36,583 nt of DNA from a virus: positions 1 through 36,583 of IMG/VR virus record IMGVR_UViG_3300044980_000018; one strand, 5' to 3'. Numbering within the stretch: position 1 is the first letter of the stretch; each line of letters begins with the position of its first letter. Position numbers and translations under genes: made by a program. A model generated the notes under the pieces. That model was given only the letters and a program-made list of their open reading frames with translations. It had not been told where the DNA came from and made no database searches. Positions 4,395-30,475 of the stretch are shown one piece after another.

Positions 4395-4400
4395 CGAACC

Positions 4401-4482
4401 GGATGAGATGCCCCAACGGCGGGGCAGCGGACTGTAAATCCGTGGCCTCCGGGCACGGCAGGTTCGATCCCTGCCTCATCCA
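4401..4482 (+). tRNA. tRNA-Tyr (anticodon GUA)
   Basis: An 82-base class II tRNA. Acceptor GGATGAG pairs perfectly with CTCATCC, discriminator A. The anticodon stem GCGGA/TCCGT (one G-T) encloses CTGTAAA, giving anticodon GTA. The long variable region GGCCTCCGGGCAC is the type expected for bacterial tRNA-Tyr. The T arm GCAGG/CCTGC encloses TTCGATC. The D loop is short. CCA is not encoded. Only six bases separate it from tRNA-Asn. Confidence 0.95.
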
Positions 4483-4502
4483 CCGACAAGAGGAGGCCAC
4501 GG

Positions 4503-6407
4503 GTGGTGACACGAACCCGCCGACCCAGTAAGCGACCCCAGATTGATACGCCCTGGTGGGCGATGGCTGAAAAGGACGCAGGTCCAGCCATGATAGACCA
4601 GGTAGCATCAATCCAGGGCCAGCAGGGAGGCATCAGATCGCGCAACTTCAGGGCCGCGAAGCTCTACGGTGGCCACGGCTTTATCAGCGCTGGCCGATTC
4701 AGCCCTGCCCTTGGGAACGCGGGCGTAAACTCGGGCTACTTCGGCAGCTACACGAGCCCGCGCTACAACCTGATCTACTCGATGGTGAACACGGTTCTCG
4801 CGCGCCTGATAGCCCCAGGCTTGCCGGGCGTGCGAATACTGACGAACGAGGCCGATTGGCCGTTGCAGGAGCGCGCGCAGCTGCTGGAGCGCTGGATCGA
4901 GGGAATATTCTACCAGTGCGACACCGACGAGCAGGCGATAAAGGCGCTCAAGGACTGCTTGGTGTTCGGGACCGGGTTCGTCAAGGCGTACACGGACAAC
5001 GACGGCCGGATCGTCAATGAGCGCATCTTCCCGGAGTCGCTCTGGACCGAGATATTCGACGGCAAGGACGAGCGGCCGCGCACATACTACTACAACGACA
5101 TCATCGACCGCGAGGTGCTGATTGACCGCTACCCGGACTCCGAGAAAGAGATCCTCGAAGCGCAGACCTTCGCGCAAGAAGGCTACGACGGCGACCGCGC
5201 CGGCAGCAGGCAGGTCGCCTGGTACGAAGCCTGGCACTTGCCGACCAGCGAGAAGCGAGGAGACGGTCTCTACCTCGCGGCGATCCCGGGCAAGGTCCTC
5301 GAGGCGCGAGAGTGGAAGCGCCGCAAACCTCCGATCGCTGCAATCAAGTTCGACCAGCTACTTAGCGGATACCTTGGTCGCGGCATGGCTGAGTTACTCT
5401 ACCCACACCAAGCAGCACTGTCCGCTATTCAGCGTGCAGAGTACTACGCGTGGTCTCAGGTGGCGCTGCCTCGGCTGTGGATCAACATTCGAAGCAAGAT
5501 CAACGAAATCCACATGATGTCGAGCCGCTCAAGCGGCATCATGCGCGGCGTCGGTGACCCGCCGACGGTGCTGAACTGGAGCGCCACGCATCCGGCGTTC
5601 GTCGAGTACAAGGACTGGGTGATCTCGAGCGCGCACGAGTTCATGGGCATCTCGCAGATGTCGGCCAGCGGAATGAAGCCGGCGGGCCTGAACTCCGGAG
5701 CCGCTCAGCGCGAGTATATGGATATCCAGGTCGAGCGGTTTGCAGTGCTCAGCCACAAGTGGGAGAAGTTCTTCACCGACATCGCGACGATCGACATTGA
5801 CGAGGCCAGCGACTCCTACGGCGACGATGAGAAGGCCGGCGAGACTGCCATGCGCGCGCAGGATGGCTTCACGAAAACGATCAAGTGGTCGCAGGCGAAG
5901 ATGGACCGCGACGTGTTCTGGATCAAGGCGTACCCGGTCAGCTCGCTCCCGCACAGCCCTGCCGGTCGGCTCGCGATGGTCTCGGAGCTAATGCAAGCTC
6001 AGCTGATCACGCGCGAGGAAGGTCTCAAGCTGCTGAAGTTCCCGGACCTGGACGAGACGCTGGCCATGGAGAACGCTAAAGAGGACTACGCCAACCGCAA
6101 CGCCTGGCTGATTCTCCGCAAGGGAGAGATGCCGCCCTATGACGGGATCGTGGATCTCCAGCTCTGCTGCACCAAGCTCCAGATGCTTTACATGAAGGCC
6201 CTGAACGGTGGGCTATCCGTCAACAGCCCGGCCGCAAAGAATACCCGGATCTGGTTGCAAGGCGCGGCCGATCAACTCGACCAGGCGAAGCAGGCGGCGG
6301 TCGCCAAGCAGGCCGCACTTGCCCCACCCGCGCTTCCGCCCGCACCTGGACCGCTCGCCAAAGGTCCGCCACCGCCAGTCAACACGGAGATGCCGATAGC
6401 AGCCTAG
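4503..6407 (+). CDS. Portal protein, 634 aa
   Basis: The dodecameric head-to-tail portal through which DNA is packaged and ejected. Length (634) suits podovirus portals. Supporting segments are the N-terminal RSRNFRAAKLYGGH, the wing/stem region with PPIAAIKFDQLLSGYLGRGM (a common portal pattern placing a conserved pro-rich turn before a surface helix), GMKPAGLNSGAAQREYMDIQ and the helix VERFAVLSHKWEKFF. The C terminus is Pro/Ala-rich. AAGAGGAGG at 4488-4496 sets the start at GTG 4503 (GTG 4506 also possible). It is followed by scaffold and capsid genes, the standard order. Assigned from motifs and context; no search could be run. Confidence 0.85.
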   Translation: MVTRTRRPSKRPQIDTPWWAMAEKDAGPAMIDQVASIQGQQGGIRSRNFRAAKLYGGHGFISAGRFSPALGNAGVNSGYFGSYTSPRYNLIYSMVNTVLARLIAPGLPGVRILTNEADWPLQERAQLLERWIEGIFYQCDTDEQAIKALKDCLVFGTGFVKAYTDNDGRIVNERIFPESLWTEIFDGKDERPRTYYYNDIIDREVLIDRYPDSEKEILEAQTFAQEGYDGDRAGSRQVAWYEAWHLPTSEKRGDGLYLAAIPGKVLEAREWKRRKPPIAAIKFDQLLSGYLGRGMAELLYPHQAALSAIQRAEYYAWSQVALPRLWINIRSKINEIHMMSSRSSGIMRGVGDPPTVLNWSATHPAFVEYKDWVISSAHEFMGISQMSASGMKPAGLNSGAAQREYMDIQVERFAVLSHKWEKFFTDIATIDIDEASDSYGDDEKAGETAMRAQDGFTKTIKWSQAKMDRDVFWIKAYPVSSLPHSPAGRLAMVSELMQAQLITREEGLKLLKFPDLDETLAMENAKEDYANRNAWLILRKGEMPPYDGIVDLQLCCTKLQMLYMKALNGGLSVNSPAAKNTRIWLQGAADQLDQAKQAAVAKQAALAPPALPPAPGPLAKGPPPPVNTEMPIAA

Positions 6408-7420: not shown

Positions 7421-8872
7421 ATGGCTGCGCAGCTTCCCGTTCCTGGAACAATCGTCACTGAGCAGGCAATCGCCAAGGAGACGTACCTCTCAGCGGACGA
7501 CATCGAAAACGTGATGATTGAGGCTGGCTACTGGGCCATGCATCTCATCAAGGGCGCCGACATGAGCGGCGCCAAGGGCAAGCGGACCCCGATCCCGATC
7601 ATCTACGGATCCGGTGGTGGCGTCGGCTCGATCTACACGGCGGCATTCGCCTCGGCCGGCCCCGCAACTGCGGCGGTCTTCGAGGTCACGCCCGGGACCG
7701 CATTCGGCGTCGGCCAGATCAGCCGTCAGGCGATCTTGCAGACCGAGGGCCAGGAGCACGCCTTCATCGAGGCACTCACCCTGGAGCTTGAGACCAAGCG
7801 GCGCCGGCTGCTTCAATACCTGGCCTTCTGCTTCTACGGAGACGGCTCGGGCGTACTGGCCCAGATGTCGGAGTCCCAGACGCTCGCCAGCACGGTCTGC
7901 ACGCTGGCTGACCCGGCAACGGCAGTGCGGTTCAACATCGGCGACGTGGTCCAGATCTCAGCCACGGTCGGCGGTGCGGTGCTGACGGCCGGCACCAACG
8001 CCTCACTGACCAACCAGGGCATCACCTACTCGGGATGCGCCTATGTAGTCGGCGTGAACGTCATCGGGAGCGCGGCCGGGACTCTGGGATTCTCGGCGAC
8101 CCCGAGCGGCGCGGCCACGGCCCTGAACACCATCTGGTCCGGCATCGCGGCCGGGGCGTTCATCTACCTGGTCGGAGACGCTGCTGTCCCGGCGAACCCG
8201 TATGGTTTCGGGAACTCTGTCATCCCCGGGATCATGGCCTGGCAGCCGCTGGTTGCTCCGATCATCTCGGACAACTTCTACGGCCAGAACCGGTTCAACA
8301 ACACCTACCTCTACGGGGCGACGATCGATGCCACCTCGTTTGCGGCCACCTCGCTCAACCTCGGCAGCATCCGCGAGTCTCTGACCTACGGAGTGGCTCA
8401 GCTCCACGCGATCAGCGCGAAGCCGACCATCATCCTCGGGAACCCGGCGCTCTTCTACGCGCTGAGCCTGAGCCTCCAGAGCCAGGGTATGTACCCCGGC
8501 TCGAGCGGCGAGGGCCCGAGCGGCGAAGGCAGCTTCGGATTCAGCTCGCTCAACATGCCGACCCCGCACGGGACCATCAAGGTCATGTCCGACCCTCAGT
8601 GCGCCCCGTTCCTCAACCCGGCCAGCTTCGACCCGGCCAACGGCTACTCTGGCGCCTACACGGCCTTCATCCTCGAGGAGGATGCCTGGAAGCTCTTGGG
8701 CGCCGCCGAGGACGGCTCGGTTCCGTTCATCGAGAAGCGCGGCGGGCGTGACGGTGACGGGCTCCAGACCATCCCCGGACTAGATGTCATGTGGTTCGAC
8801 CTCAAGTTCTACGGCCTGCCGATCACGTTCGCACCGGGACACGGGTTGACCGTTTTGTGCCCCCAATCCTGA
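7421..8872 (+). CDS. Major capsid protein, 483 aa
   Basis: The HK97-type shell protein by position and profile. A helical N-terminal region (residues 20-45) is followed by a conserved GSGGGVGSIY loop and the long spine helix EALTLELETKRRRLLQYLAF (about 117-136). A beta-rich segment at about 152-255, full of Gly/Thr/Val, resembles an inserted domain like those of P22-type capsids. The C-terminal part (SLNMPTPHGTIKVMSDP, then AFILEEDAWKLLG) fits the A-domain with its axial strand. GGAG lies seven bases before ATG 7421. It is probably the most abundant virion protein. The fold class is inferred from sequence pattern only. Confidence 0.87.
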   Translation: MAAQLPVPGTIVTEQAIAKETYLSADDIENVMIEAGYWAMHLIKGADMSGAKGKRTPIPIIYGSGGGVGSIYTAAFASAGPATAAVFEVTPGTAFGVGQISRQAILQTEGQEHAFIEALTLELETKRRRLLQYLAFCFYGDGSGVLAQMSESQTLASTVCTLADPATAVRFNIGDVVQISATVGGAVLTAGTNASLTNQGITYSGCAYVVGVNVIGSAAGTLGFSATPSGAATALNTIWSGIAAGAFIYLVGDAAVPANPYGFGNSVIPGIMAWQPLVAPIISDNFYGQNRFNNTYLYGATIDATSFAATSLNLGSIRESLTYGVAQLHAISAKPTIILGNPALFYALSLSLQSQGMYPGSSGEGPSGEGSFGFSSLNMPTPHGTIKVMSDPQCAPFLNPASFDPANGYSGAYTAFILEEDAWKLLGAAEDGSVPFIEKRGGRDGDGLQTIPGLDVMWFDLKFYGLPITFAPGHGLTVLCPQS

Positions 8873-12002: not shown

Positions 12003-13457
12003 ATGCCCAGCACCCCTAAATACGGAATGCCAATCCCGCAGGGCGGGACAACGCCTGGCGCCCTGAACAACACGACAGCAGGGTCCTATCCGTTCATGTT
12101 CGGAGACCCGACGACCGGGATCCTCAACATCCTGGACTCGCAGACCTATGGCGTCCCGAACCCGGTCCCTATCGCCACTGGCCTGAACCCGAACGGAAAC
12201 CTCAACCTCGGCGGGTTCGGAATCACGAACGCCAGCACCGGATCGTTCTCTGGCGCGCTCACGATCGGCGGTACACTCGGAGTCACCGGAATCACGACGC
12301 TGACGGGCGGCGTGGCGTCGCCTCTGCTGATCGGCGCAGGGCTGCTGAACACGGTAACGATCACCGGCAAGGCCACCGGGACCGACCCCACGATCACGGT
12401 GGCCGGGGATGCGACGCGGAACCTGGGCCTGGTCCTTCCTGCCGCATCTACCTCAACGCAGGTCGGATTGAGCATTACGACCAGCGCGGGAGCAACGGCG
12501 GCACTGCTTGGTGGTGGGGCCAGCACAGGTTACGGGTACCTCTGGCTTGGGGCATCGGCATCCAACGCCAGCGGCACGAACTATTCTCTCGCCTCCAACC
12601 TGACGAATCTCTTCCTGAACTCTGGAAGCTCGATCCAGTTCGACGTTGCCGCAGCGACATACCTGAACCTAACCTCGGCATCGCTGGCAATTAGTGGCAT
12701 CCCGATCCAGCAAAATACCGCCGCCACCGCCCTCACGCTCAAGGGCAACGCGGCGGCGACGGGCTCGACTGGAGGCGTTGTCCTGGTTGGAAGCCAGAGC
12801 ACCACGCAGACCAGCGGGATCACGCTCGCGGTTCAGAACCCCGCCGGCACGTCCATCGCCACCGTGGACTTCGCCGGGAGCTTCGTCTCGGCATCCGGCA
12901 AGTTCGGCGCGATCACCACGGCCGGAAACGTCGGCCTGACGCTCACCGGGAACGCGGCGGCCGCCGGGACTGCTTGCCAGATCATCGCCAACACAGACGT
13001 GACCGGAACCGGCTACATCCTCGGCCTTCAGTCTGGCTCGCTTCAGTTCGCCGTGTCCGGGCGCGGTCACCTGATTCCGCTGAGCACCGTCCCAAACACG
13101 CCGGCCTCCGCGAACTTCAACGGCGGCTACACGGCCACGGCGGCCGTGACGGCCATCAGCGTCAATGGCAGCGACGCCGCGTTCCAGCTCAAGTTTACCG
13201 TGAACGGCGTCCCGACCTCGATCAACGCCGGGTCCGTGCTGGTGACGATCACGCTGGCTCAGGCGTACCAGAGCACGTCGGTGGTCGGTTTCGCCTGCTA
13301 CGGAAAGGCTGCGGGGCTCAGCGATACCGTCGGCCTCGCGGTAGTGCAGAACGCCGTCGGGACCATCCAGATCATCAACACCCAGACCTTCACGCCCGTG
13401 AGCGGGACCTCGTACGTCTTCAACGTCTTCACTATGGGCGCCGGGTCGACCTCCTGA
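12003..13457 (+). CDS. Tail fibre protein, 484 aa
   Basis: A probable receptor-binding fibre. The N-terminal 65 residues (PKYGMPIPQGGTTPGALNNT) are a likely virion-anchoring segment. From about residue 66 the chain becomes a low-complexity Gly/Thr/Ala/Ser beta repeat, for example NLNLGGFGITNASTGSFSG and TLGVTGITTLTGG, the pattern of trimeric beta-fibres. The C-terminal 130 residues (from about 355) are a less repetitive globular tip (SVNGSDAAFQLKFTVNG). It is the only clear fibre gene in the genome. It overlaps the next gene by one base. Host-receptor specificity would lie in the tip. Confidence 0.78.
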   Translation: MPSTPKYGMPIPQGGTTPGALNNTTAGSYPFMFGDPTTGILNILDSQTYGVPNPVPIATGLNPNGNLNLGGFGITNASTGSFSGALTIGGTLGVTGITTLTGGVASPLLIGAGLLNTVTITGKATGTDPTITVAGDATRNLGLVLPAASTSTQVGLSITTSAGATAALLGGGASTGYGYLWLGASASNASGTNYSLASNLTNLFLNSGSSIQFDVAAATYLNLTSASLAISGIPIQQNTAATALTLKGNAAATGSTGGVVLVGSQSTTQTSGITLAVQNPAGTSIATVDFAGSFVSASGKFGAITTAGNVGLTLTGNAAAAGTACQIIANTDVTGTGYILGLQSGSLQFAVSGRGHLIPLSTVPNTPASANFNGGYTATAAVTAISVNGSDAAFQLKFTVNGVPTSINAGSVLVTITLAQAYQSTSVVGFACYGKAAGLSDTVGLAVVQNAVGTIQIINTQTFTPVSGTSYVFNVFTMGAGSTS

Positions 13458-16400
13458 TGGACCTCCAGAAGCAAGTTCTGTCGCTGCCGATGTCTCTCGG
13501 TATCGACACCGAGAACGCGGCGCCGCTCATCGACAACCAGCGGTTTGCGTTCCTCAGTAACTGCGTGTTCAACAAGGACAACAACGGCCAGCTGCATAAG
13601 CGCTCCGGGCACAATCCGCTTCTGCGCACGCTCCAGGGTGGCGGTATGCTTCCCGCCGCTCAGCTGCTCGCGATCTTCAATGAAGAGACCTGCGCGGTAG
13701 CCGGTGGCGCGCTCTATGGGTATTCGACCCAGGCGCAGAACTGGGCGAACCGTGGCTCGCTGCCGATGGTTCAGGAGGTCGAGACCAACATCGCCGCCGG
13801 AGCATTCTCGGTCCAGAACCCGGATGCGGTCATCCTCAACGGCATGGCGTACTACGCCTACGAGATGAACGGCAACAGCTGGGTCAAGGTCGTTGACGAC
13901 TCAAACAAGAGCATCAAGGCGACGATCAAGCTGTTCGGCGGAAGCGTCCCGAACTACACGCCAAAGCTCGTATCGAACGGCACGAACGTGATCGCGCTGA
14001 GCACAACAGCGCTCGGCGTCATGTGGGCAACGACGATCAACGCGACGACCTACGCAGCGACCTTCTCCAGCGTTCTCGGCATTACGCTGGACGTTGTAGC
14101 GAACGAGGGCTGCTTCGACGCGGCTGTCCTGAGCGGGACGCTCTATGTGGCGTTTATCCACTCTTCGGGCGTCTACATCTACAGCTATAGCGCATCCACC
14201 CTGGCCAATATCGCCACTGCCAACCCCGGGTTAGCTGGGACTACCGGAGCTGTCGCGCCTGCTCCGATCAGCCTCTCGACGGCCGGGACAAGCATCGTTC
14301 TGACTTGGCAGTTTGCCCAGAACGCCCCAGCCAACGCAGGCAAGTTCCAGACCGTTGCCTATTCGAGTTCGGCGCTGATGAGCCCGACGACCTATTCGCT
14401 GTTCCCAGTTGCTGGTGCTCCGGCCGCAGCTCCAAGGTTGGCAACGCTTGGCCTGACCTATGGATCCGCGAACATCCTGCTGGTCTTCTATGAACAGGCT
14501 CCGAGCGGAATCGCAATCCTGTCCAGCATCAACTTCGAGGTGGTCAATCTTTCCGGCGGCAACGTCGCGATGGGCACCTGGTCCACGGGGACCAACATCT
14601 CCGGGCAGCCATTCGTCCAGGGCTCGAATCTCTACCTGCCGGTGGTCTACCCGTCGCAGGTTCAGCAGACGCTCTTCCTGACCTATCAGGCGCTCGGAAC
14701 CACGCCCATCGGCCTCGCTCAGGTCGCCGGCCGGTACTTCTCCAGCAACGACGCCGGGGCTGCACCGACGAACTTCCGGACCCCGCAGTCGTTCGTCACC
14801 AGCACGGGCCAGTCGCTCCCGGTCGTCGTCCAGCCGCAGGGCACGTCGGCGTCATCGGTCAGCGCGTCGCTCTCTGAGCTGTCGTTGTCGTTCTCGGTGG
14901 CCATGAACTCAGCCCAGCTCGGCGGAGATCAGCATCTCGCGCTCGGGTCGATGATGATGGACTACGACGGGACGAACCTCGTCGAGCATAACTTTCACCT
15001 GTTCCCGGAGACCCTGAGCATCAGTTATCTGACGAGCCAGCTGACCGTGATCACGGACTACTACGATCCGACCGATGCCGGACCCGGCAGCCAGTTCACG
15101 ACCAGGATCGCGATCCCGGACAACGCGGCGAGCCCCGGCGGTCCCGTCGGCCAGCTGATCACGCCTGGTGAATACATCACCTTCTCTGCGGCATCATCCA
15201 ACCCGATAGGGGCGAGTTCATCGGTCGTCTACTTCACGGTCAACGGCGTCGGCACGGCACCGACTGGGATCGGCACAGGCGCCGTTCCGTTCAACATCAC
15301 GTCCAACATGACGGCGATCCAGATCGCGACGGCCCTCTACGCCTTCCTCCAGGCGAGCTATTCGGCCACCTATCTGATCTCGTACACTCCGATCTCGCAG
15401 ACGAACGTTGCGCAGCCTCAGTACATCTACGTCTCGAATGATCAGCTGATCGCTGCCGGGTTCTTCCCGCCTGTTCTGAACCGCGTCAGCACGGCGACTC
15501 AGGTCTACATCGGGAACGGAGTGGCCAAGGCGATCGCCGGGATCTCTACGCCACCGGCTAACCTTATTTCTTCGGGGCAGTATGGGTCTTTCGGAGCAAT
15601 GAACTCGAACGGGACGGCGGCGGTCGTCCAGACCTACTTCTGGTTCAACAACTCGGCCAATCAAACGGTCGGAAACGAGACCCTGGTCGCAACTGATCCC
15701 ATGCCGTTCGGGATGCTGGCTGGCTCAGGAACGGCCAATGGATACCCGGTTACATACGGATCATACGCAAGCGGTGGATTCCAGTACATCGGGATCGAGG
15801 TAACGCTTGCGGCAGGAGATACGGCGCAGGCCGTTGCCGCCAAGGTTGTCCTGGCGCTCACCGCGTTGCAGACCGGTCCATATGTCGGCGGCATCCTGTC
15901 GGATCCGTACAACGGAGCTTTCATCTCAACCCAGCATGGAAACGTGGTCGAGATTCAGTCTCCGACATCCGGCGCCTTCCCCATCATCCAGCCAGCCAAC
16001 TACCCGACCACGACCATCGGGCAGGGCTACGTCGGGACAGTCGTCAACAACTCTAACCAGCCTTACGCCGAGATCAACTACTCTGCTGTCCGCGAGTGGA
16101 TCGACTCCCAGAACCAGTTGCACCAGAGCGCTCCGAGCGAACCCGCCACTGCCTATATCCCGACCTACCAAGCCACCGGTCTGCCAGCCACGCTGCCTGC
16201 CAACGCCAGCAACATCATCCCCGCTGGCTCTGCCGTTCCGGTCTCGGCCGTCGTGCAGCTCGGCGTTCAGCCGCTCAGCCTGACGCTCAAGACAGCCGCG
16301 CTGACAGGGACTGAGCTTGACACCGCGATCTATCGGACCATCAGCGGAGCCACGGTCGGAAACCAGATCTACTACCGGATCACGCCGTCGACGAGCCCGC

Positions 16401-17668
16401 TGTTCAATCAGCCGACCAGCACGATCGCGATCGCTTATGCGGACTACTCGGGCGACGGCGAGAGCTCCACGGCTACAGGGACGACCGCCACTGGAGTTCA
16501 GGCAAACCAGCTTCTCTACACGACGGGCGGTGTCCAGCCGAACGCCGCGCCGCCGGCCTGTTCTTACGTGCTGAACCATCAGAACCGCCTCTGGCTGACC
16601 GGGCTAGAGAACCCGGACGAGCTTTGGTACTCGGAGACGTGGGAGTCTGGCTTTGCGGTCAATTTCACGAGCGCCCAGCAAGTGCTCCTGAACCCGATCG
16701 TGGGCGCGGCCGTGGGTGGGCCGATCGTCGCGCTAGCGAGCATGGATAGCTACCTGATCGTCTTCCAGGAAAACCAAATCTGGTACATCCAGGGCTATGG
16801 GCCGGACCCGACGGGCGGGAACGGGTTATTCAGCCCGCCGCAGATTGTCGCCAGCTCGAGCCAGATCGGCTGCCGAGACCCCCAGAGCGTGGTCCTGATG
16901 CCGAACGGCGTCATGTTCAAGTCCACGCAGGGGTTCTGGCTGCTCGGCCGAGACTTGCAGCTCCGCTACGTCGGCGCGGCGGTCAAGGGATACAACGCTG
17001 ACGTCGTGACCAGCTCGGCGGCGCTCGCGAACAACAGCCAGATCAATTTCCTGAGCAATAGCGGCACGACGCTGATGTACGACTGGTATTACGATAGCTG
17101 GGCGACCTTCACGACGAACGGCCTGGACTCCGTGCTGGATGCGACCGGGACTTTCAACATGATCACCAGCTCTGGAGCGATCTGGTATCAGGTTAATGGC
17201 CAGTACATCGATGGGGACGGGTCGCCGGTCCTCATGGGCATCACGACCGCATGGCTCAAGCCGCAGAACGTGCAGGGCTTCCAGCGCATCTGGCGGATCT
17301 TGCTTGAGGGACTGTTCTACGGCTCGCAGCAGTACAACGTGACGATCGCCTACAACTATGGTGCAATCGTGGACAACTTCCCGGTGTTCGTCGGAGCCGG
17401 TGGAGCTCAGGTCGGCGTCTGGGGCCAGTCCGCAACCTGGGGCGAGTTCCCGTGGGGCGAGGATGCAGGTAGCGCGACGACGTATGCCAACCAGATCCAG
17501 CTGCGGATCGACAACTCGAACCAGCTTTGCGAGTCGCTCCAGTTGTCGATCTCTGACCTGCCTCCTGTGCCGGTCAATCAGACGTGGTCTTTGAATGCGC
17601 TCGACCTCGTGTTAGGGGTTAGGAGCGGTGGTTTCAAGCGCATCGGTCCTCCGCAGAGCGTGGGGTAA
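13457..17668 (+). CDS. Very large tail nozzle / hub protein, 1403 aa
   Basis: ATG 13457 overlaps the fibre stop (TGATG); the frame is open much further upstream but only within the fibre gene. The start (SLPMSLGIDTENAAPLIDNQ, then NCVFNKDNNGQLHKRSGHNP) is typical of podovirus tail proteins of the P22 gp10 / T7 gp12 class that close the tail tube. The C-terminal third has propeller-like strands with RLWLTGLENPDELWYSETW and YLIVFQENQIWYIQG. At 1403 residues it is about twice the usual length. The extra middle (residues about 400-950) is a Thr/Ser/Ala/Gly-rich beta region that might be surface exposed. Assignment by pattern and order. Confidence 0.72.
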   Translation: MDLQKQVLSLPMSLGIDTENAAPLIDNQRFAFLSNCVFNKDNNGQLHKRSGHNPLLRTLQGGGMLPAAQLLAIFNEETCAVAGGALYGYSTQAQNWANRGSLPMVQEVETNIAAGAFSVQNPDAVILNGMAYYAYEMNGNSWVKVVDDSNKSIKATIKLFGGSVPNYTPKLVSNGTNVIALSTTALGVMWATTINATTYAATFSSVLGITLDVVANEGCFDAAVLSGTLYVAFIHSSGVYIYSYSASTLANIATANPGLAGTTGAVAPAPISLSTAGTSIVLTWQFAQNAPANAGKFQTVAYSSSALMSPTTYSLFPVAGAPAAAPRLATLGLTYGSANILLVFYEQAPSGIAILSSINFEVVNLSGGNVAMGTWSTGTNISGQPFVQGSNLYLPVVYPSQVQQTLFLTYQALGTTPIGLAQVAGRYFSSNDAGAAPTNFRTPQSFVTSTGQSLPVVVQPQGTSASSVSASLSELSLSFSVAMNSAQLGGDQHLALGSMMMDYDGTNLVEHNFHLFPETLSISYLTSQLTVITDYYDPTDAGPGSQFTTRIAIPDNAASPGGPVGQLITPGEYITFSAASSNPIGASSSVVYFTVNGVGTAPTGIGTGAVPFNITSNMTAIQIATALYAFLQASYSATYLISYTPISQTNVAQPQYIYVSNDQLIAAGFFPPVLNRVSTATQVYIGNGVAKAIAGISTPPANLISSGQYGSFGAMNSNGTAAVVQTYFWFNNSANQTVGNETLVATDPMPFGMLAGSGTANGYPVTYGSYASGGFQYIGIEVTLAAGDTAQAVAAKVVLALTALQTGPYVGGILSDPYNGAFISTQHGNVVEIQSPTSGAFPIIQPANYPTTTIGQGYVGTVVNNSNQPYAEINYSAVREWIDSQNQLHQSAPSEPATAYIPTYQATGLPATLPANASNIIPAGSAVPVSAVVQLGVQPLSLTLKTAALTGTELDTAIYRTISGATVGNQIYYRITPSTSPLFNQPTSTIAIAYADYSGDGESSTATGTTATGVQANQLLYTTGGVQPNAAPPACSYVLNHQNRLWLTGLENPDELWYSETWESGFAVNFTSAQQVLLNPIVGAAVGGPIVALASMDSYLIVFQENQIWYIQGYGPDPTGGNGLFSPPQIVASSSQIGCRDPQSVVLMPNGVMFKSTQGFWLLGRDLQLRYVGAAVKGYNADVVTSSAALANNSQINFLSNSGTTLMYDWYYDSWATFTTNGLDSVLDATGTFNMITSSGAIWYQVNGQYIDGDGSPVLMGITTAWLKPQNVQGFQRIWRILLEGLFYGSQQYNVTIAYNYGAIVDNFPVFVGAGGAQVGVWGQSATWGEFPWGEDAGSATTYANQIQLRIDNSNQLCESLQLSISDLPPVPVNQTWSLNALDLVLGVRSGGFKRIGPPQSVG

Positions 17669-17671
17669 GCA

Positions 17672-19435
17672 ATGGCGAACACTCCTGGCATCCTGAACGA
17701 CTTCATGAGTGGCCTCTTCGGCGGCGGTCAGTCCGCTGCCGATGCGCTCAAGGCCAACGGATACACGCCCTATCAGGTCACGCAGGGGCCGAATGTCTCA
17801 AAGAACTTCCAGGGCTACCAAGGCGCGCAGGCCAACACGGCGGCGAATGCGCCATACCAAGCCGCTCAGTCGCAGCTGCTCGGCCAGCTCCAGGGCGAGG
17901 CCAGCGGAACCGGCGGACCCACCGTTGCCGACCAGCAGCTCCAGGCTGGGACCGGTCAGGCTCTCGCGGCGCAGAAGGCTGCGATGGCCGGGCAGCGAGG
18001 CCAGAACGCGGGCCTCGCTCAGGCGCAGCTTGGGACGAACCTCGCCAACACGACGGCGGGAGCGGCCGGACAGGCAGCGGCACAGAGGGCGGAGGAACAG
18101 CAGAACGCTCAGGGCGCGCTCGGTGGCCTGACCCAGGGCGCCATCGGCCAGGGTAACCAGCTTGCCGAGGCGAACCAGGCCAGCACGAACCAGGGCCTCG
18201 CCGCCACTTCGCAGGCCGCACAGAACTACGGAAACCTCCAGAATCAGGATTGGCAGTACACGAACAACCTGAACGCCGCCCAGCAGGCCCAGTACAACCA
18301 GATGATCGGCTCCATGACCGGGGCGGCCGACCAGAGCCAGGCGAACATCGGCAACCAGCTCGCCGGCAGCGCGATCAACACGGGGATCCAGGGACTCAGT
18401 CAGATCTTCAGCAACCAGAGCGGCGCGGCTGACGGCACCGTGGTCATGGCTGATGGCGGCGCAGTCGGGATGCAGCCGCATTACTCGCAGTATGACCTGA
18501 CCGGCCCCGGTGGCGGGGCGGGCGGCGGGACCGGCTACGACCCGACCGCGCGCATGGGCGGGCAGCCGATGGCGGATGGCGGGATCACTGGGTTTCCTGG
18601 CATCACCGGACCGTCGACCGTATCCGGGGACATGGGGGCCATGCCGCCCTCGCTTCAGCCGGCCATCTCGGCAGCTTCGATGCAGGGCGGAGTGGCTGGG
18701 CTTGCAGATGGCGGCATCTCGTCCAGCGCCGGGCCGATGCCGATGTACCCTGGGATCAGCGTGGCGACGGCGCCGGCGCCGGAGTTGACGAACTGGCTGG
18801 CCAAGAAGAGCAGCGGCGGAAAGCCCCAGGCTAAGCCAGGTCAGCAGAGCCAGCCCCAGAGCGCCAGCGCGGGGCAGGGGCAGGAAGCCTACGGAATGCC
18901 AAGCGGTGGCGATCAGTATGACACAGGCCAGGCGGCCTATGGGATTCCGAGCCCAGACTCCAGCGGGCCGAGCGTTGACACATCAGGAACGGGCGCTGAC
19001 TTCGGCAGCCTCGGCGCGACAGATGCGGCCGGAGCCGCTGGCGCAGTCGGGGCGGTGGCTGAAGGCGGGGTCTTCGACTGCAACGGCCGTGTCGCAGGCA
19101 TGGCTGACGGCGCCGTCTCCGCTCCGGTCGCCCACGGCCCCGAGAAGGCCATCATCGGCGAGAACGGTCCCGAGGCGGTTGTGCCCATCAAGCCGAACGG
19201 CGACGTAGACCCAGCCAGGGCGCGCAATCCTGCCGTCAGGCAGCTCCTGGCCAGTCACCCAGGGCTCAGGCACATCCAGGACGCCGGAGCGCCCCAGGGG
19301 CAGCCTACGGGCACCGGAGACCATGCCACGGCGGCGGCGCTGGCCATGGCCGGGGCGCACCTGTCTGACCGGGTAGCACACCTGGAGCAACTTCTGAGCA
19401 GCCAGGCACGGAAGAGCCAGCGGAGGGCGGCATGA
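17672..19435 (+). CDS. Internal virion / ejection protein with ADGG repeats, 587 aa
   Basis: Residues 1-240 are Gln/Ala/Asn-rich and helical (ALAAQKAAMAGQRGQNAGLA), as in podovirus ejection proteins. The second half holds repeated ADGG elements (VMADGGAVG, PMADGGITG, LADGGISS, VAEGGVFDC, MADGAVS) and then IIGENGPEAVVPIKPNG at about residues 491-507, the signature found near the C terminus of tape-measure-like and internal virion proteins. A final helix (HLSDRVAHLEQLLSSQ) may oligomerise. GGGGTAAG precedes ATG 17672; the end overlaps the next gene by an ATGA. It is probably injected or lodged in the tail channel. Function inferred. Confidence 0.7.
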   Translation: MANTPGILNDFMSGLFGGGQSAADALKANGYTPYQVTQGPNVSKNFQGYQGAQANTAANAPYQAAQSQLLGQLQGEASGTGGPTVADQQLQAGTGQALAAQKAAMAGQRGQNAGLAQAQLGTNLANTTAGAAGQAAAQRAEEQQNAQGALGGLTQGAIGQGNQLAEANQASTNQGLAATSQAAQNYGNLQNQDWQYTNNLNAAQQAQYNQMIGSMTGAADQSQANIGNQLAGSAINTGIQGLSQIFSNQSGAADGTVVMADGGAVGMQPHYSQYDLTGPGGGAGGGTGYDPTARMGGQPMADGGITGFPGITGPSTVSGDMGAMPPSLQPAISAASMQGGVAGLADGGISSSAGPMPMYPGISVATAPAPELTNWLAKKSSGGKPQAKPGQQSQPQSASAGQGQEAYGMPSGGDQYDTGQAAYGIPSPDSSGPSVDTSGTGADFGSLGATDAAGAAGAVGAVAEGGVFDCNGRVAGMADGAVSAPVAHGPEKAIIGENGPEAVVPIKPNGDVDPARARNPAVRQLLASHPGLRHIQDAGAPQGQPTGTGDHATAAALAMAGAHLSDRVAHLEQLLSSQARKSQRRAA

Positions 19436-21108
19436 GCTACCGGCAGATCCTCGCCAAGATCGCGCTCGACCACCACAAGAGCGGCGGCGCGGACATCAAC
19501 GCCGAGGTGGCGAGGCGGTTTCTGGCCGGGGGGGATGTGACCAGCGGGGTGCCGGATGCGCTGCCACCCGGCGCGGGATCCGACATGCCGGACTCTGGAC
19601 CGGGTGCCGAGCCTGCGACTGGGCCGAGTCCGGTGGCCAAATTCCTGGCGCCCGGACAGGATCCGAACGGACCGCCACCTGTCGGAGCAACCGGCCAGAA
19701 TCCAGATGGGTCGTGGATCATGCCGGAGGCGGCGGCCGAGCCAGCAACTGCCGAGGCGGATCACTCGGGGCAGCCGGGCGCGAAAGAGCCCACCGTCACC
19801 GGAGACCATATCGAGCCTCCCGCACCTGCTAAGCCGAAGCCTGTTTCACGTGGAACCGGACCAGCCCGGCAACCCCAGCCAGACGCCACCAGCCAATCCG
19901 AGGACGCGATCCAGCGCCAGCAGGATCAGGGCGTCGACCTTCAGACCGCCGAAGCTGGCCAGGAGGGAGATGCCAAAGCAGCCGCGATCCAGGCAGCGAC
20001 CAGGGATGCCCAGGCCGAGCGGAATGCGGATATCGCCTTTCGCAAGGAACTCGATGACCGGAACCTGCGGCTCGGCCAAGAGCAGGACAACATGATCCAT
20101 GAGTACGCGAACGCATCGGTTGACCCGAAGCGCTACTGGAACAGCCTCGACACCGGCCACAAGATCCTGGCTGGGCTATCGCTCGTGCTAAGCGGCAACG
20201 GGGACGGCAGTCCCGTGATCCGCGCGATCAACACGGACATCGACAACCAGAAAGAGCAGATCGAGCGCACCGGCAAGGCGGCCGGGATGCTGGGAACCCT
20301 GATGGAGCGCTACAGCTCCATGGGGCTCAACCACGTCCAGGCGATGGAGCATTCCGTCGCTACTGCCAAGCTCATCGCCGACGAGCAAGTCGATGGCATG
20401 ACCCAGAAGTTCGCCGGGGTTCGGGCGACGGCGGCAGTCCCGATCTTGAAGGCGAACAATGCCCAGAACCGGATCAACGCCCAGAATACGAACATGAAGA
20501 CGGCGGCCGAGATCCAAGCACAGAAAGCCGCGGCCGGTGAGAGCTACGCCAGGACGCGCGGACAGAATCTCCAAAACGAACTTTCTCAAGCCACGAACGA
20601 CTACTGGCGAAAGCAGGGTCTTCTCGGGGTCCCGCACGAAGGGATGGTCACAGGTCCGAACGGCGAGGAGGGCTATTCGCTCGGCGGCGCCGCTGGTGCC
20701 AAGATTTTCAATGACGAGTCGGGGCCAGCCGTCCAGGCAGATAAGGCAATGAAGGCAATCCAGGAACTCCGCAAGCCAGGCGTGATTGCGAATGCCTTCA
20801 ACCAAAAGGCACTCAAGCAGGCCGGGGAGGATCTTGGCTCGGCTGTTCTCCAGATGCAGGGACTGAAAGACAAGCCGAACTCTGCCGAGATCGTAAAGCA
20901 CTTCACGGGGGATGCGTCGGAGCTTGTCCCGGGCCTCGGTGGCGACTGGGAGAAGCAGTACGTCCCCGGCCTAACGCGGATGATTCAGAACCATATCGAC
21001 CTCGCAACCCAGCACGGCAACGTGCAGTTCAGGCCCGATCCTGCCGCTGCGGCCCGTGCTCTCCGCAGACCCATGCTGCCCGGAACAGAGAAGAAGCGCC
21101 GTGGCTGA
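19432..21108 (+). CDS. Internal virion / ejection protein, 558 aa
   Basis: The second of three long internal-type proteins. The N terminus has a small folded start (SYRQILAKIALDHHKSGG), then a Pro/Gly/Ala-rich disordered stretch to about residue 150, then a long helical region rich in Gln, Ala, Lys and Glu (AAAIQAATRDAQAERNADIA; IQAQKAAAGESYARTRGQNL). A hydrophobic segment HKILAGLSLVLSGNG near residue 243 resembles short amphipathic parts of DNA-ejection proteins. No enzymatic motif was seen. It overlaps the previous gene by an ATGA and the next by eight bases. Assigned from order and composition. Confidence 0.65.
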   Translation: MSYRQILAKIALDHHKSGGADINAEVARRFLAGGDVTSGVPDALPPGAGSDMPDSGPGAEPATGPSPVAKFLAPGQDPNGPPPVGATGQNPDGSWIMPEAAAEPATAEADHSGQPGAKEPTVTGDHIEPPAPAKPKPVSRGTGPARQPQPDATSQSEDAIQRQQDQGVDLQTAEAGQEGDAKAAAIQAATRDAQAERNADIAFRKELDDRNLRLGQEQDNMIHEYANASVDPKRYWNSLDTGHKILAGLSLVLSGNGDGSPVIRAINTDIDNQKEQIERTGKAAGMLGTLMERYSSMGLNHVQAMEHSVATAKLIADEQVDGMTQKFAGVRATAAVPILKANNAQNRINAQNTNMKTAAEIQAQKAAAGESYARTRGQNLQNELSQATNDYWRKQGLLGVPHEGMVTGPNGEEGYSLGGAAGAKIFNDESGPAVQADKAMKAIQELRKPGVIANAFNQKALKQAGEDLGSAVLQMQGLKDKPNSAEIVKHFTGDASELVPGLGGDWEKQYVPGLTRMIQNHIDLATQHGNVQFRPDPAAAARALRRPMLPGTEKKRRG

Positions 21109-24100
21109 GATCCCGCTAAGCCAGGCAGCAGACCAGATCGCGGCCGGCACCTTCATGCCCACGGTCGAGCAGCCGATGATCGGGCCAGACGGCACGGCCC
21201 AGATCGTCCAGCCGGCTGGCGTCAAGCAAGCCCTGGCTGACGGGTTCAAGCTCGTCGACCATGCGACCGCCCAGCACGTTGCGGACGTGCAGGAGGCTGG
21301 TGAGCACCCGATCAAGGCGTTCGGCGTCGGCCTCGCTAAGGGCGTGGTCCCGTTCGCTCCGTCGATCATCCAAGCCGCAGGAGGGCCGACACTTGAGGAA
21401 CAGAGAAACCTCGCGGAGGGCAATCCGCTCGCGACGCCCGCTGGTGAGCTTACTGGAAACGTGGGCCAGGCGGTCATTGGAGGACTGCTCACCGGTGGGG
21501 CTTCCGATGTTGCCGAAGGAGCCTCACTCGGAAGCAAGGTCTTCGACGCCGCCGACATGGCCAAGCAAGCCGCCATCTTCGCCGGCCAGGGCGCCAGCAA
21601 CGAGATCAACGAGCAAGATCTAGGTGACCATGGATACAACGGAGAGGCTGTGGTGTCTCAGGCTGGACTCGGAGCGTTGCTTGGTGCCGCATCCAGTCCT
21701 GCTTTCGCTCTGGCCAAGGAAGTGCTTCCGAATCCGATTACCGCAGCCGGTAATGCGATTGCCAAAGCGAGTGACGCCCTCACTGGCGCGCTGGGGCGAA
21801 CGGCCGGTGAGGGCGGGGAAGCTGCGGCGCGGAGCATTGGGGAGCTAGGCGCGGCCGAAGCACAGAACAGGATCGCCACGGACATTGCGAGCGGACTTCA
21901 GGACACGGTCGACAAGAGCTTTGATCAGATGAGCGCGATCCACGAGGACCTGAAGCCGGCACAGGTGCGGGCGCTGAGCGAGCAGGATGCCTATGGCACG
22001 ACCGACCCAGTTGCTCAGATCGAGCGGACCATCGCCAACGATCCGAACGAGTCTTCTTATCTGGTAGCTCCGAACGGTCGGGTCTTATCAAAGATCGGAG
22101 GAGCAAATCATGTCGCCCTCGACCCAGCGGAACTAAAAGATCTCGAGCAAGGCACGATCCTTACTCACAATCACCCAGGTGGATCCTCTCTCTCCAGCGA
22201 CGACGTATCGATCGCATCTGTAATCCCCGGCGTGCATGAAGTTAGGGCAGTATCAAGAGGGATGGATGGTGTGGTCCGAGTTCATTCCATCTCGCCAGAG
22301 GGTCCGGCATGGCCGCATCCGATTAGCATCAACACCGCCTTCGATGATCAGATCGGGGAGATGGGCACTGCACTTTATCGGCTTCCGATTGATCAGAGAG
22401 CGAATGCTGTCTGGGAGAAGATAGCCACGAAGCTCGGCTTGAAGTACACGACTTCCGAGCTTGAGCCGGGCCTAGTCGGTCACACAGTCGGCAAGACTGC
22501 GACGGCCATCAATGCATTCAGAACTAACGGGATCGATCCGACGCTCTCCAGGCTTACGGCACTGGCCGACGATGGCAGGATCAGCAAGCCCCTGGTGAGC
22601 GAGGTCGAGACCGCTGTCAGGGACTGGAACGAGGCCACGTCCAAGGCAACCACGATGCTCGACTACCAGGCCGCGAATCATCAGCTTGGGCGAACCCTCG
22701 ACGACAACGTGATGAAGTACGCCAAGGACCTAACGCCTGGCGTGGCGCCGGTGGTGCGCGACGTGGAGCAGAACATCCGCACACCGCTGCGCCAGATGCT
22801 GCGCGACCCGGAGATCATGGGGCCACGGCTGGCGAGCGCCAATGGTGCGCTGACTGATGCTGAGCACGCGCTGTTCCAGTCAACCGAGGCTCTCTATCGC
22901 GGGCTGGGGTTCACTGATCTCCTGGCGGATGGCCGACCAGCCGACAAGGCTAGGATCAGCGCGAGTCGGGTACTTACCAACCTGCGCAACTCGGAGAAGC
23001 TCGGCCAACAGCAAAACAACGCCGTGATCCAGCGGTTCCTCGCGGATGCCAAGAACCTCAACGACGTGACCGCCCAAGTCGCCAAGGATGGCGGGCACAC
23101 CACCGATACCGAGCAAATCCAGAACCTGCTCCGGGACCAGGCCACCAAGCAGGCACAGGGCCAGGCGACGGCCAAGCTCTCCGGTTCTGGCACGCTCAAC
23201 GGCGGCATGGGCTATAGCGTCGGCGGCTTCGGCCCGGAAGTCGCGGCCGGGCTGCTCGGTCATGCCGCGTCCATGGCCACCGGAGTCCCCGGCCTCGGAG
23301 CTGCGGCTGGGCTCGCGACCCGTGGCGTGCGCCTCGTCAAGCACCCCGCGAGTACGCTGGAGATGCTCGGCAAGATCAAGGCCCTCGCCGACAAGCACAC
23401 GGCCGACATCGCCAAGGCCGCCAGCTCTTTCTTCACCGGGACCGGCCGAGTGGTTGCTCCGGTGGTCGCCGGCAATGCCCTGCGCGCCGGCAAGGACTAC
23501 GGCGACCACGACAGCGACACTGAAGCCAGGATGGCAGAGGTGCGGACGCTGAGCAGCAATCCGGGGCTACTGAGCAACACGCTGATGCGGAACACGACCG
23601 CGCTGGCCGACGGGGCTCCCGTGACGGCGCTCTCGGTGCAGACCAACACGCAGACGAGGCTTGGCGTTGTGGCATCGACTCTCCCGAATCCGGGGCCACA
23701 GGGCATGATCCGCACCAAGTACCCGCAGAGCATCGACGCGACCCAGAAGTTCGAACTGTGCCTGAACGTCATGAGCCACCCGGCCAAGGCAATCCAGGCC
23801 GCTATGGTAGATGAGAACCTGACTTCTGACATGGTCGACTGGGGGGACCGTGGAGCCCCCAAGACCATGGCCGCCATACGCCAAGCCTTCCAGTCGGAGA
23901 TGGTCGACCGCTATGACCACGACTACACCCTCGGCCAGAAGCAGATGCTCTCGGTGCTATTCAAGGCGCCAGTTACACCAGATGTCGCTCCGGCTCAGGT
24001 GGCGTTCCTTCAGGCAACCTTCGCTCCGCCGGCTCCGACGCCTCCTCCTGGAGGCACGGGAAAGCCAAGCCTGACCGGACTCGCGAAGCTGAACCCCGGA

Positions 24101-24148
24101 AATGCTATAGCTACACCAACGCAGTCTAGACAGATGGAGAGGGCTTAA
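21101..24148 (+). CDS. Large internal virion protein with a JAMM/RadC-like HNHP motif, 1015 aa
   Basis: GTG 21101 overlaps the upstream gene by 8 bases. The N-terminal 270 residues contain Gly/Ala-rich hydrophobic segments (VGLAKGVVPFAPSIIQAAGG; QAVIGGLLTGGASDVAEG), as in proteins that cross membranes during DNA ejection. At about residues 300-420 there is a compact domain with YLVAPNGRVLSKIGG, TILTHNHPGGSSLSSDDV (H356, H358, D368) and HEVRAVSRGMDGVVRVHSIS. The HNHP...S..D pattern is that of JAMM/RadC-like metallopeptidases; no upstream catalytic Glu could be fixed. The rest is helical with more Gly/Ala segments near 710-740. It might cleave peptidoglycan or a host protein during entry. The enzyme role is inference. 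Confidence 0.7.
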   Translation: MAEIPLSQAADQIAAGTFMPTVEQPMIGPDGTAQIVQPAGVKQALADGFKLVDHATAQHVADVQEAGEHPIKAFGVGLAKGVVPFAPSIIQAAGGPTLEEQRNLAEGNPLATPAGELTGNVGQAVIGGLLTGGASDVAEGASLGSKVFDAADMAKQAAIFAGQGASNEINEQDLGDHGYNGEAVVSQAGLGALLGAASSPAFALAKEVLPNPITAAGNAIAKASDALTGALGRTAGEGGEAAARSIGELGAAEAQNRIATDIASGLQDTVDKSFDQMSAIHEDLKPAQVRALSEQDAYGTTDPVAQIERTIANDPNESSYLVAPNGRVLSKIGGANHVALDPAELKDLEQGTILTHNHPGGSSLSSDDVSIASVIPGVHEVRAVSRGMDGVVRVHSISPEGPAWPHPISINTAFDDQIGEMGTALYRLPIDQRANAVWEKIATKLGLKYTTSELEPGLVGHTVGKTATAINAFRTNGIDPTLSRLTALADDGRISKPLVSEVETAVRDWNEATSKATTMLDYQAANHQLGRTLDDNVMKYAKDLTPGVAPVVRDVEQNIRTPLRQMLRDPEIMGPRLASANGALTDAEHALFQSTEALYRGLGFTDLLADGRPADKARISASRVLTNLRNSEKLGQQQNNAVIQRFLADAKNLNDVTAQVAKDGGHTTDTEQIQNLLRDQATKQAQGQATAKLSGSGTLNGGMGYSVGGFGPEVAAGLLGHAASMATGVPGLGAAAGLATRGVRLVKHPASTLEMLGKIKALADKHTADIAKAASSFFTGTGRVVAPVVAGNALRAGKDYGDHDSDTEARMAEVRTLSSNPGLLSNTLMRNTTALADGAPVTALSVQTNTQTRLGVVASTLPNPGPQGMIRTKYPQSIDATQKFELCLNVMSHPAKAIQAAMVDENLTSDMVDWGDRGAPKTMAAIRQAFQSEMVDRYDHDYTLGQKQMLSVLFKAPVTPDVAPAQVAFLQATFAPPAPTPPPGGTGKPSLTGLAKLNPGNAIATPTQSRQMERA

Positions 24149-24151
24149 CCC

Positions 24152-24523
24152 ATGGCAATGTTTCTCAATGTGGCCCAGATCGACGCCACCCCAGGCAAAC
24201 CGCAGAGCATCGTGACGAGCGCCACAAGCGCCAATATCAAGATGCCGGTCAGCGCCCCGAACGCGATGAACACCACGGCTGGTCAGACTGGTGGACCGCA
24301 GGACTTGGCGGGGCGCGGGCTCTGGCTGGTCTACGTCTCCGGGTCAGCCGTCAACGTCCGCTTCGGCCTGACGGCTCCCACGGCCGTCGGAACGGATCCA
24401 GTCTGGGGCCTCGGTTGGCTGCCGCTCCCGATTGCCATCCCGCCCGGGACCTTCGTCGCCGCGCTCGGCACCGCGACGGCTGGCAGGGTGGACTTCTTCC
24501 GCGTCTACGCCTTCAGGGATTGA
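24152..24523 (+). CDS. Small beta-rich virion-type protein, 123 aa
   Basis: Family not recognised. It is a Gly/Ala/Thr/Val-rich beta-type sequence (GRGLWLVYVSGSAVNVRFGL, then IAIPPGTFVAALGTATAG), resembling small phage surface or fibre-tip domains. GAGAGG stands upstream of ATG 24152, three bases after the previous stop. It is the last substantial gene of the rightward structural operon. A role as a minor decoration or tail-tip protein is plausible but unproven. Confidence 0.65.
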   Translation: MAMFLNVAQIDATPGKPQSIVTSATSANIKMPVSAPNAMNTTAGQTGGPQDLAGRGLWLVYVSGSAVNVRFGLTAPTAVGTDPVWGLGWLPLPIAIPPGTFVAALGTATAGRVDFFRVYAFRD

Positions 24524-30233: not shown

Positions 30234-30475
30234 AGACTGAGGACGAGATCCATCGCGAACTGCGCCGCAAGCTGGAGGAGAAGCTTGATGCCGCCGAGAA
30301 GAGCTCGGCCGGAATGTGCTCATCGTGCAGCGGTGACAAGCTGTGCCAGTGCCAGCATTGGCGACCGCCCGGAATCAATCATCGCGGCGAAAAATGCGAG
30401 TGGTGCAAGGATGGCGCGTGCCCGTCGTGCCAGGGCTGTGGCGGATCGGCGGACTGGGTAGCGCGTGCAACTTAG
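30230..30475 (+). CDS. Zinc-finger protein, 81 aa, upstream of helicase
   Basis: ATG 30230 is coupled to the previous stop (ATGA) after GGGGAG. The N-terminal helix (DEIHRELRRKLEEKLDAAEK) is followed by dense Cys motifs: MCSSCSGDKLCQCQHW, then CEWCKDGACPSCQGCGG. The spacing of four CxxC-like pairs resembles two zinc knuckles of DnaJ/rubredoxin type. It overlaps the helicase gene by 11 bases, so it may be a cofactor of it, but this is inference. Confidence 0.65.
   Translation: MKTEDEIHRELRRKLEEKLDAAEKSSAGMCSSCSGDKLCQCQHWRPPGINHRGEKCEWCKDGACPSCQGCGGSADWVARAT

What the first reader, a model, noticed from the sequence alone, without database searches (positions are those of the whole stretch)
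21990..22400. JAMM/RadC-like domain in a DNA-ejection-type protein
TILTHNHPGGSSLSSDDV has the H-x-H-P...S..D metal-binding pattern. It lies within a 1015-residue internal protein that also has membrane-like Gly/Ala stretches. Known JAMM domains cut peptidoglycan-linked or isopeptide bonds (as in phage tail K-type proteins). Here it could open the cell wall on entry or act on a host protein after injection. A clear catalytic Glu was not found.
Basis: partly seen in the sequence, partly recalled or inferred. Interest (0 to 1): 0.58.

Follow-up and report, generated by a model that had tools for sequence, protein, structure and literature searches.

The report
Phage-carried JAMM enzyme in ejection protein
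A little-known bacterial virus carries, inside a large protein probably injected into its host, an enzyme-like domain of a kind otherwise found mostly on other phages' capsid proteins, so it is probably a weapon or tool delivered at infection.

Summary
The domain is real. Residues 300-453 of the 1015-aa protein (window 21998-22459, +) belong to a large, coherent JAMM-fold family: a family HMM scores the window 82.8 bits, still 30.2 with the motif masked, against shuffles at or below -1.8. The AlphaFold model is confident (pLDDT 92.7) and its best realigned solved structures are RadC and archaeal JAMM1. The 'missing' catalytic Glu is E317, present in 170 of 171 family sequences although it was not part of the search pattern. 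Neither Pfam nor NCBIfam named the domain at the thresholds used. Relatives mostly form C-termini of phage minor-capsid proteins: MuF in 41 and Phage_min_cap2 in 9 of 90 ORFs. Some sit on VgrG-like or exoprotein carriers, often followed by small genes that could encode immunity proteins. In the window the domain is a low-GC island in the last of three putative ejection proteins of a podovirus-like late region. Best reading: an active-site-intact metallohydrolase carried as injected cargo. Wall-cutting is not supported. Substrate, delivery and activity are untested.

The parts
21101..24148 (+). 1015-aa carrier protein, last of three large ORFs after the tail genes; putative ejection/internal virion protein
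   Evidence: ORF and translation; no Pfam, PHROG or NCBIfam match; no tblastn match in 50,697 phage records; role by gene order, inference
21998..22459 (+). JAMM/JAB-fold domain, residues 300-453
   Evidence: family HMM 82.8 bits; AF2 pLDDT 92.7, pTM 0.87; VIA-align best rows RadC 2qlc Z 7.1 and PfJAMM1 5ld9 Z 7.0; GC 54.8% against 64.5% in the rest of the gene
22049..22051 (+). E317, predicted catalytic Glu
   Evidence: E in 170 of 171 and 100 of 100; hhalign places it on the RadC Glu; just before the first strand of the model
22166..22174 (+). H356-N357-H358, predicted metal ligands
   Evidence: end of strand 66-72 of the model
22193..22204 (+). S365 and D368 of the motif (D368 predicted metal ligand, near the start of a helix)
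22238..22246 (+). E380-x-R382, family-specific E-x-R motif not seen in the RadC set
   Evidence: R in 167 of 171, E in 149 of 171; RadC sequences
19432..21108 (+). 558-aa putative second ejection-module protein
   Evidence: position, Ala/Gly/Gln/Pro-rich, no family match
17672..19435 (+). 587-aa putative first ejection-module protein
   Evidence: position, Ala/Gly/Gln-rich, no family match
13454..17668 (+). about 1404-aa tail/internal virion protein
   Evidence: phrog_511 internal virion protein E 1.6e-7 and phrog_8094 tail appendage E 4.7e-4
7421..8872 (+). putative major capsid protein
   Evidence: phrog_14242 E 2.8e-5
4503..6407 (+). putative portal protein
   Evidence: phrog_156 E 2e-4
24152..24523 (+). 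123-aa downstream ORF, 3 nt after the carrier's stop; not a member of the putative immunity clusters
   Evidence: best blastp against 171 downstream ORFs E 5.7; no AFPxxIP or CxxCKH motif in six frames of the window

Best explanation
Residues 300-453 are a zinc-type JAMM-fold hydrolase with a complete predicted active site (E317, H356, H358, D368, with S365). It belongs to an unnamed family whose usual carrier is a phage minor-capsid (MuF-type) protein and which also occurs on other secreted or injected carriers. In this phage the domain seems to have been transplanted into an ejection-type virion protein. The proposed working: the protein is packaged, leaves the particle with the DNA, and the domain hydrolyses a host molecule in the cytoplasm early in infection, as an effector or counter-defence enzyme. 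Shown: family, fold, conserved active site, the carriers of relatives, the compositional island. Inferred: metal, activity, packaging, injection, cytoplasmic target. Within this reading I put peptide or isopeptide bonds at about 55% and nucleic acid or nucleotides at about 45% (RadC is the nearest relative by profile).
For: Family HMM from 170 domains without the window: 82.8 bits; motif masked 30.2; shuffles at or below -1.8. E317 in 170 of 171 though absent from the selecting pattern. In 10 relatives not selected by the pattern H-x-H, S and D are kept in 10 of 10 and E in 8 of 10, the other two being gaps. AF2 pLDDT 92.7; best VIA-align rows RadC, PfJAMM1, BubCD, Rpn11. hhalign against RadC probability 94.9 with Glu on Glu. 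Carriers: PF04233 in 41 and PF06152 in 9 of 90; 8 of the 23 BFVD matches at E <= 0.001 are named minor capsid protein, a set not selected by the motif. Domain GC 54.8% against 64.5%; all 47 windows of 4436 with GC3 at or below the domain's lie in this gene. Small downstream genes: 92 of 171 at most 110 aa, against 62 of 360 control ORFs.
Against: All Z-scores are under 8, where unrelated arrangements can score, and plain Foldseek against PDB gave nothing below 1e-3 (best a deaminase, E 0.016). The carrier has no detectable homologue, so 'ejection protein' rests on gene order; an AF2 model of its C-terminal part without an alignment is unusable (pLDDT 43.6). The domain is mid-protein here but C-terminal in most relatives, and no immunity-like gene follows it, unlike in many relatives. 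H-x-H-x6-S replaces the canonical x7. The family was sampled with a motif-based pattern. Low GC can also reflect the domain's amino-acid content, although GC3 is low too.
Confidence: 0.6

Rival explanations
1. Cell-wall enzyme: the domain cleaves peptide bridges in peptidoglycan during entry, as proposed for lambda K-type JAMM proteins and by analogy with the transglycosylase domain of T7 gp16 (both recalled).
For: By gene order the carrier is the last of the ejection-module proteins, where T7 keeps a muralytic domain (recalled; order).
Against: No peptidoglycan-hydrolase family was listed for the 90 or 20 relatives scanned at E <= 0.001; relatives ride on head proteins; resemblance to 7 Prok-JAB sequences is weak (probability 9.7).
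Confidence: 0.1
2. Processing protease: the domain cuts its own carrier or other virion proteins during assembly, or frees effector parts after injection.
For: Polyvalent proteins are proposed to be processed by their own peptidases (PMC5512222, passages); in L076 the domain lies between MuF and further effector-like segments; here it is mid-protein.
Against: In 106 of 120 viral rows it lies within 135 residues of the C-terminus, so usually nothing downstream remains to be released.
Confidence: 0.15
3. A fold kept for structure or binding only, with no catalysis in this phage.
For: Activity was not testable; the protein is a sequence orphan outside the domain.
Against: E, H, H, S and D are all kept in the window and almost without exception in the family.
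Confidence: 0.1

Closest known systems
RadC-clade JAB domains (PF04002)
   Same: HNHP motif; Glu aligned with E317; profile-profile probability 94.9; nearest solved structure 2qlc, Z 7.1, 19% identity over 100 residues
   Different: Below the Pfam cut-off (12.2 against 22.1 bits); lacks RadC's PREV and LDH stretches; has E-x-R and P..W; spacing x6 rather than x7; virion carrier
MuF polymorphic toxins of temperate phages (PMC5576092; passages and section 7 read)
   Same: Many family members are C-terminal extensions of MuF proteins (41 of 90 ORFs match MuF), often with a small gene after them
   Different: The window protein has no MuF match and carries the domain in the middle; that paper reports metallopeptidase domains in 20% of MuF toxins without naming JAB in the text searched
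Tox-JAB-1 and Tox-JAB-2/DUF4329 (PMC3482391; passages read)
   Same: JAB fold used as toxin module; Tox-JAB-2 noted in tailed phages
   Different: Motifs given there are NxxxE/HxH and E/H[ST]H; this family has HNH, and neither family appeared in the Pfam scans
RadC domains in polyvalent proteins (PMC5512222; section 16 and passages read)
   Same: JAB domain in large proteins predicted to be delivered with DNA
   Different: Those are the RadC clade proper; carriers there differ
AfJAMM, PfJAMM1, BubCD and Rpn11 isopeptidase-type JAMM domains
   Same: Fold and active-site residues
   Different: 11-18% identity in the rows of these proteins; no evidence of a ubiquitin-like substrate

Membership tests
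JAMM/JAB superfamily | H-x-H and Asp metal ligands plus upstream Glu, and the Ser before the Asp | tested here: met
   E317, H356, H358, S365 and D368 present and conserved
JAMM/JAB superfamily | exact spacing of the published motif E-Xn-H-S/T-H-X7-S-x-x-D | tested here: not met
   here H-N-H-X6-S-x-x-D; Asn between the histidines is known in distant JAMM relatives, and RadC also has HNH
JAMM/JAB superfamily | JAMM/deaminase-type alpha-beta fold | tested here: met
   AF2 pLDDT 92.7; best VIA-align rows are RadC and JAMM proteins, Z 7.1 and lower, below the tool's 8
JAMM/JAB superfamily | bound zinc and hydrolysis | not testable with these tools
   no assay; model coordinates not available
RadC family (PF04002) | Pfam gathering score | tested here: not met
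   12.2 bits against 22.1
RadC family (PF04002) | PREV and LDH stretches of RadC sequences | tested here: not met
   seen in most of the RadC set, absent from the window domain
Prok-JAB / lambda K type | PF14464 match | tested here: not met
   no match at E <= 1 for the protein or E <= 5 for the domain; hhalign probability 9.7 against 7 members
MuF polymorphic toxin | MuF domain at the N-terminus | tested here: not met
   no Pfam match for the window protein
MuF polymorphic toxin | toxin domain at the C-terminus | tested here: not met
   domain at 300-453 of 1015
MuF polymorphic toxin | adjacent immunity gene | tested here: inconclusive
   downstream 123-aa ORF unlike the relatives' small genes; immunity families are too diverse to exclude
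[quoted passage not shown]
   not among the families listed for 90 and 20 members; model identities recalled
Podovirus ejection protein (T7 gp16 type) | sequence homology to a known ejection protein | tested here: inconclusive
   no match found; C-terminal fold model unusable
Podovirus ejection protein (T7 gp16 type) | position after tail genes at the end of the late module | tested here: met
   gene order; the T7 order itself is recalled

The most novel reading that the evidence does not exclude
The domain is a virion-delivered deconjugase: it enters with the DNA and strips ubiquitin-like conjugates made by bacterial antiviral systems (CBASS Cap2-type or Bil/Bub-type), so that the phage carries its own deubiquitinase-like counter-defence, moved between MuF and ejection-protein carriers.
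Probability: 0.12. Interest if true: 0.85.

Novelty: new variant of a known kind. Interest (0 to 1): 0.52.

Why it matters
A widespread phage JAMM family was not named by Pfam or NCBIfam at the thresholds used, keeps its catalytic residues almost without exception, and rides on virion proteins, so it is a ready set of testable injected enzymes. The window adds a second class of phage carrier (ejection-type instead of MuF), which argues that delivery, not a capsid-specific role, is what the domain needs. If the target is a bacterial conjugation or nucleotide-signal defence, it would explain why phages pack it in the particle rather than express it late.

Tried and rejected
Whole-protein tblastn against phages: no match. 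The search for related loci with the whole protein, the domain, the 1404-aa protein and the portal: no relatives, so the phage has no close kin in the scanned set as far as exact 8-residue patterns can tell. Window late proteins and the carrier's flanks against all loci then held, by tblastn: nothing at E <= 0.05. Domain tblastn against plasmids: only short weak matches, set aside. C-terminal half against 398 genomes: two weak matches (L256, L257), judged chance because L257 lies in a sensor-kinase-like ORF and L256 scores E 0.59 on realignment. Profile of the family against PDB sequences: nothing relevant. Plain Foldseek against PDB: deaminases first, none at E <= 0.001. C-terminal AF2 model: pLDDT 43.6, not used. 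Profile search of 299 genomes each from two phyla: 7 and 1 with a match at E <= 1e-5, so the domain is sparse in genomes. Counter-defence papers: searches listed no paper that I recognised as describing this domain; only PMC texts are held. The Bil paper (Hor 2024) was seen only as a reference entry.

Considered and dropped: tail-fibre or tape-measure role (wrong position); a chance motif (shuffles).

Full report
WHAT IS THERE. The window is an IMG/VR virus record of 36,583 bases. The protein runs from a GTG at 21101 (an upstream GTG at 21056 is also possible) to 24148, 1015 aa. The corresponding DNA pattern has one match in the window and none in 100 shuffles. Pfam, PHROGs and NCBIfam gave nothing for the whole protein. 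The isolated region gave only a sub-threshold RadC match, 12.2 bits against a cut-off of 22.1.

FINDING THE FAMILY. Tblastn of the domain against phages gave two weak matches, but both proved to be relatives. One is gp044 of Aphanizomenon phage CL131; it led to Dorea phage DO134P1, where the domain is the C-terminus of a MuF protein (PF04233 E 2e-14). A five-sequence alignment showed an invariant Glu, two Gly, THNHP, S, D and E-x-R. With L004 and L007 these make 208 motif-bearing ORF rows, of which 205 have a Glu 30-50 residues upstream and 196 an R-containing motif downstream.

IS THE WINDOW A MEMBER? An HMM from 170 non-identical domains, without the window, aligns window residues 300-453 at 82.8 bits. 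With the 14 motif residues masked the score is 30.2, while of 20 shuffles the 12 that were reported scored -1.8 or less. So the relation does not rest on the motif that selected the family.

ACTIVE SITE. It is E317: Glu in 100 of 100 rows, 90 of 90 ORFs and 170 of 171 domains, one gap. It was not part of the selecting pattern. In 10 relatives found without that pattern (L002, L003, L005, L006, L259-L264) H-x-H, S and D are kept in 10 of 10, and E in 8 of 10 with two gaps (L258 and L265 in the same table are re-finds of genomes already held and are not counted). In AfJAMM, E22 (strand beta 2), H67 and H69 (beta 4) and D80 (alpha 2) form the site, and Asn may replace Ser between the histidines in distant relatives (PMC300881, passages). 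The window model has the same order: E just before a strand, H-N-H at the end of a strand, D in the next helix. The one departure is X6 instead of X7 between H and S.

FOLD. AlphaFold2 with 100 rows gave pLDDT 92.7 and pTM 0.87. Plain Foldseek against the PDB ranked blasticidin deaminases first (E 0.016) and nothing below 1e-3. Realignment put RadC 2qlc (Z 7.1), PfJAMM1 5ld9 (7.0), PfJAMM1 with SAMP2 5lda (6.9), BubCD 9ea4 (6.7) and Rpn11 3jck (6.5) on top; AfJAMM 1oi0 scored 5.2. These Z values are middling and would not convince alone; the profile and residue evidence carries the claim. Profile-profile comparison gave probability 94.9 against 25 RadC sequences, with E317 on the RadC Glu, and 9.7 against 7 Prok-JAB sequences (18 loci were fetched; 11 did not pass my motif filter and were dropped, several of them being RadC); RadC against Prok-JAB gave 91.5. 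The family is therefore nearest to RadC but is not RadC.

CARRIERS. Of 90 ORFs scanned (the window and 89 viral ORFs, thinned for redundancy and length from 121 rows), 41 match MuF (PF04233) and 9 Phage_min_cap2 (PF06152); one each matches portal and a capsid-type protease. NCBIfam's SPP1 gp7 minor capsid model matches 36 of 90, and no model for the domain itself appears. A set not chosen by the motif agrees: of 23 BFVD structures at E <= 0.001, 8 are named minor capsid protein. Among 20 long or bacterial ORFs, one carries a VgrG-type hub domain (PF05954) and some carry Ig- or cadherin-like exoprotein domains. L076, the best blastp match of the window, is a 1122-aa ORF; I read it by eye as MuF, JAMM, then ADP-ribosyltransferase- and RelA-like segments (DRAT matches one of 90). 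In 106 of 120 viral rows the domain is C-terminal.

PARTNER GENES. The ORF after the JAMM gene clusters into recurring small families: 15 of 171 Cys-rich with AFPxGIP (12 with the strict motif), 11 of about 190 aa next to flavobacterial ORFs, 8 and 6 small ones, several with a 4-base overlap (the 9-member cluster may be ordinary phage genes). Such ORFs are at most 110 aa in 92 of 171 cases against 62 of 360 control ORFs; on the other hand a 4-base overlap is no commoner than in the controls (22 of 171 against 45 of 360) and close spacing is rarer (62 of 171 against 193 of 360). This looks like toxin with immunity, but it is adjacency only, and the control is crude. The window has none of these: its downstream ORF has no match, and the Cys-rich motifs are absent in six frames.

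THE WINDOW'S CASE. The late region reads portal-like, Glu/Ala/Lys-rich scaffold-like, capsid-like, tail-like, then three large ORFs (587, 558, 1015 aa), the last being the carrier. That order is podovirus-like (T7 order recalled), and none of the late ORFs given to PHROGs was listed as MuF. The domain is a compositional island: GC 54.8% against 64.5% and GC3 58% against 76% in the rest of the gene. Of 4436 windows of 154 codons in nine late genes, the 47 with GC3 as low or lower all lie in this gene. The simplest reading is a recent transplant of a cargo domain into an ejection-type protein.

MECHANISM. Shown: family, fold, complete conserved site, carriers, island. Inferred: zinc, hydrolysis, packaging, injection, cytoplasmic action. 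MuF toxins and polyvalent proteins are proposed to be delivered with DNA (PMC5576092, PMC5512222, PMC3482391; passages read). The last two argue that RadC-like and toxin JAB domains lack the ubiquitin-tail groove and may act on nucleic acids, which is why I split the substrate about evenly. Cap3 of CBASS is a JAB deconjugase (PMC10097602, passages), so a delivered deconjugase is conceivable but unproven.

NOVELTY. The JAB fold as a phage or toxin module is known. The searches listed no paper that I recognised as describing this HNHP family or its presence in an ejection-type protein; supplements were not open to me, and the MuF paper's 'metallopeptidase' class could include it. I call it a new variant of a known kind.

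Noticed in passing
window 39-566 and 3292-4008 (+): The terminase large subunit looks split: phrog_5909 positions 5-87 match the first ORF and 110-183 the second, about 2.7 kb apart. Possibly an intron or inserted genes.
   Followed up: no
window 4323-4484 (+): tRNA-Asn and tRNA-Tyr genes side by side just before the portal gene.
   Followed up: no
window about 24.5-28 kb: AT skew turns negative here, suggesting that genes run on the minus strand between the late module and the helicase region.
   Followed up: no
downstream ORFs of L011, L033, L045, L048, L077, L103, L104, L125, L136, L161, L166, L177, L178, L183, L193: Recurring Cys-rich small protein (CxxCxH...AFPxGIPxxIW.G.NxH..P.PGDxGIxFE) next to JAMM genes of viral, bacterial and archaeal contigs; candidate immunity protein or partner.
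   Followed up: partly
downstream ORFs of L132, L133, L139, L151, L154, L159, L170, L174, L175, L205, L210: A family of about 190 aa follows the JAMM ORF, mostly in flavobacterial contigs, where the domain ends large proteins (one of 20 long ORFs scanned has a VgrG-like domain); candidate immunity family.
   Followed up: partly
L076:2802-6167 (+): 1122-aa ORF that reads as MuF, JAMM, ADP-ribosyltransferase-like and RelA-like segments in one chain (by eye).
   Followed up: partly
L014: Two JAMM motifs in one 695-residue open frame, suggesting tandem domains.
   Followed up: no
window 30465-31853 and 33430-34734 (+): A DNA helicase (phrog_16 E 1.2e-93) and a primase/helicase (phrog_36873 E 8.6e-45) of an otherwise orphan phage.
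   Followed up: no
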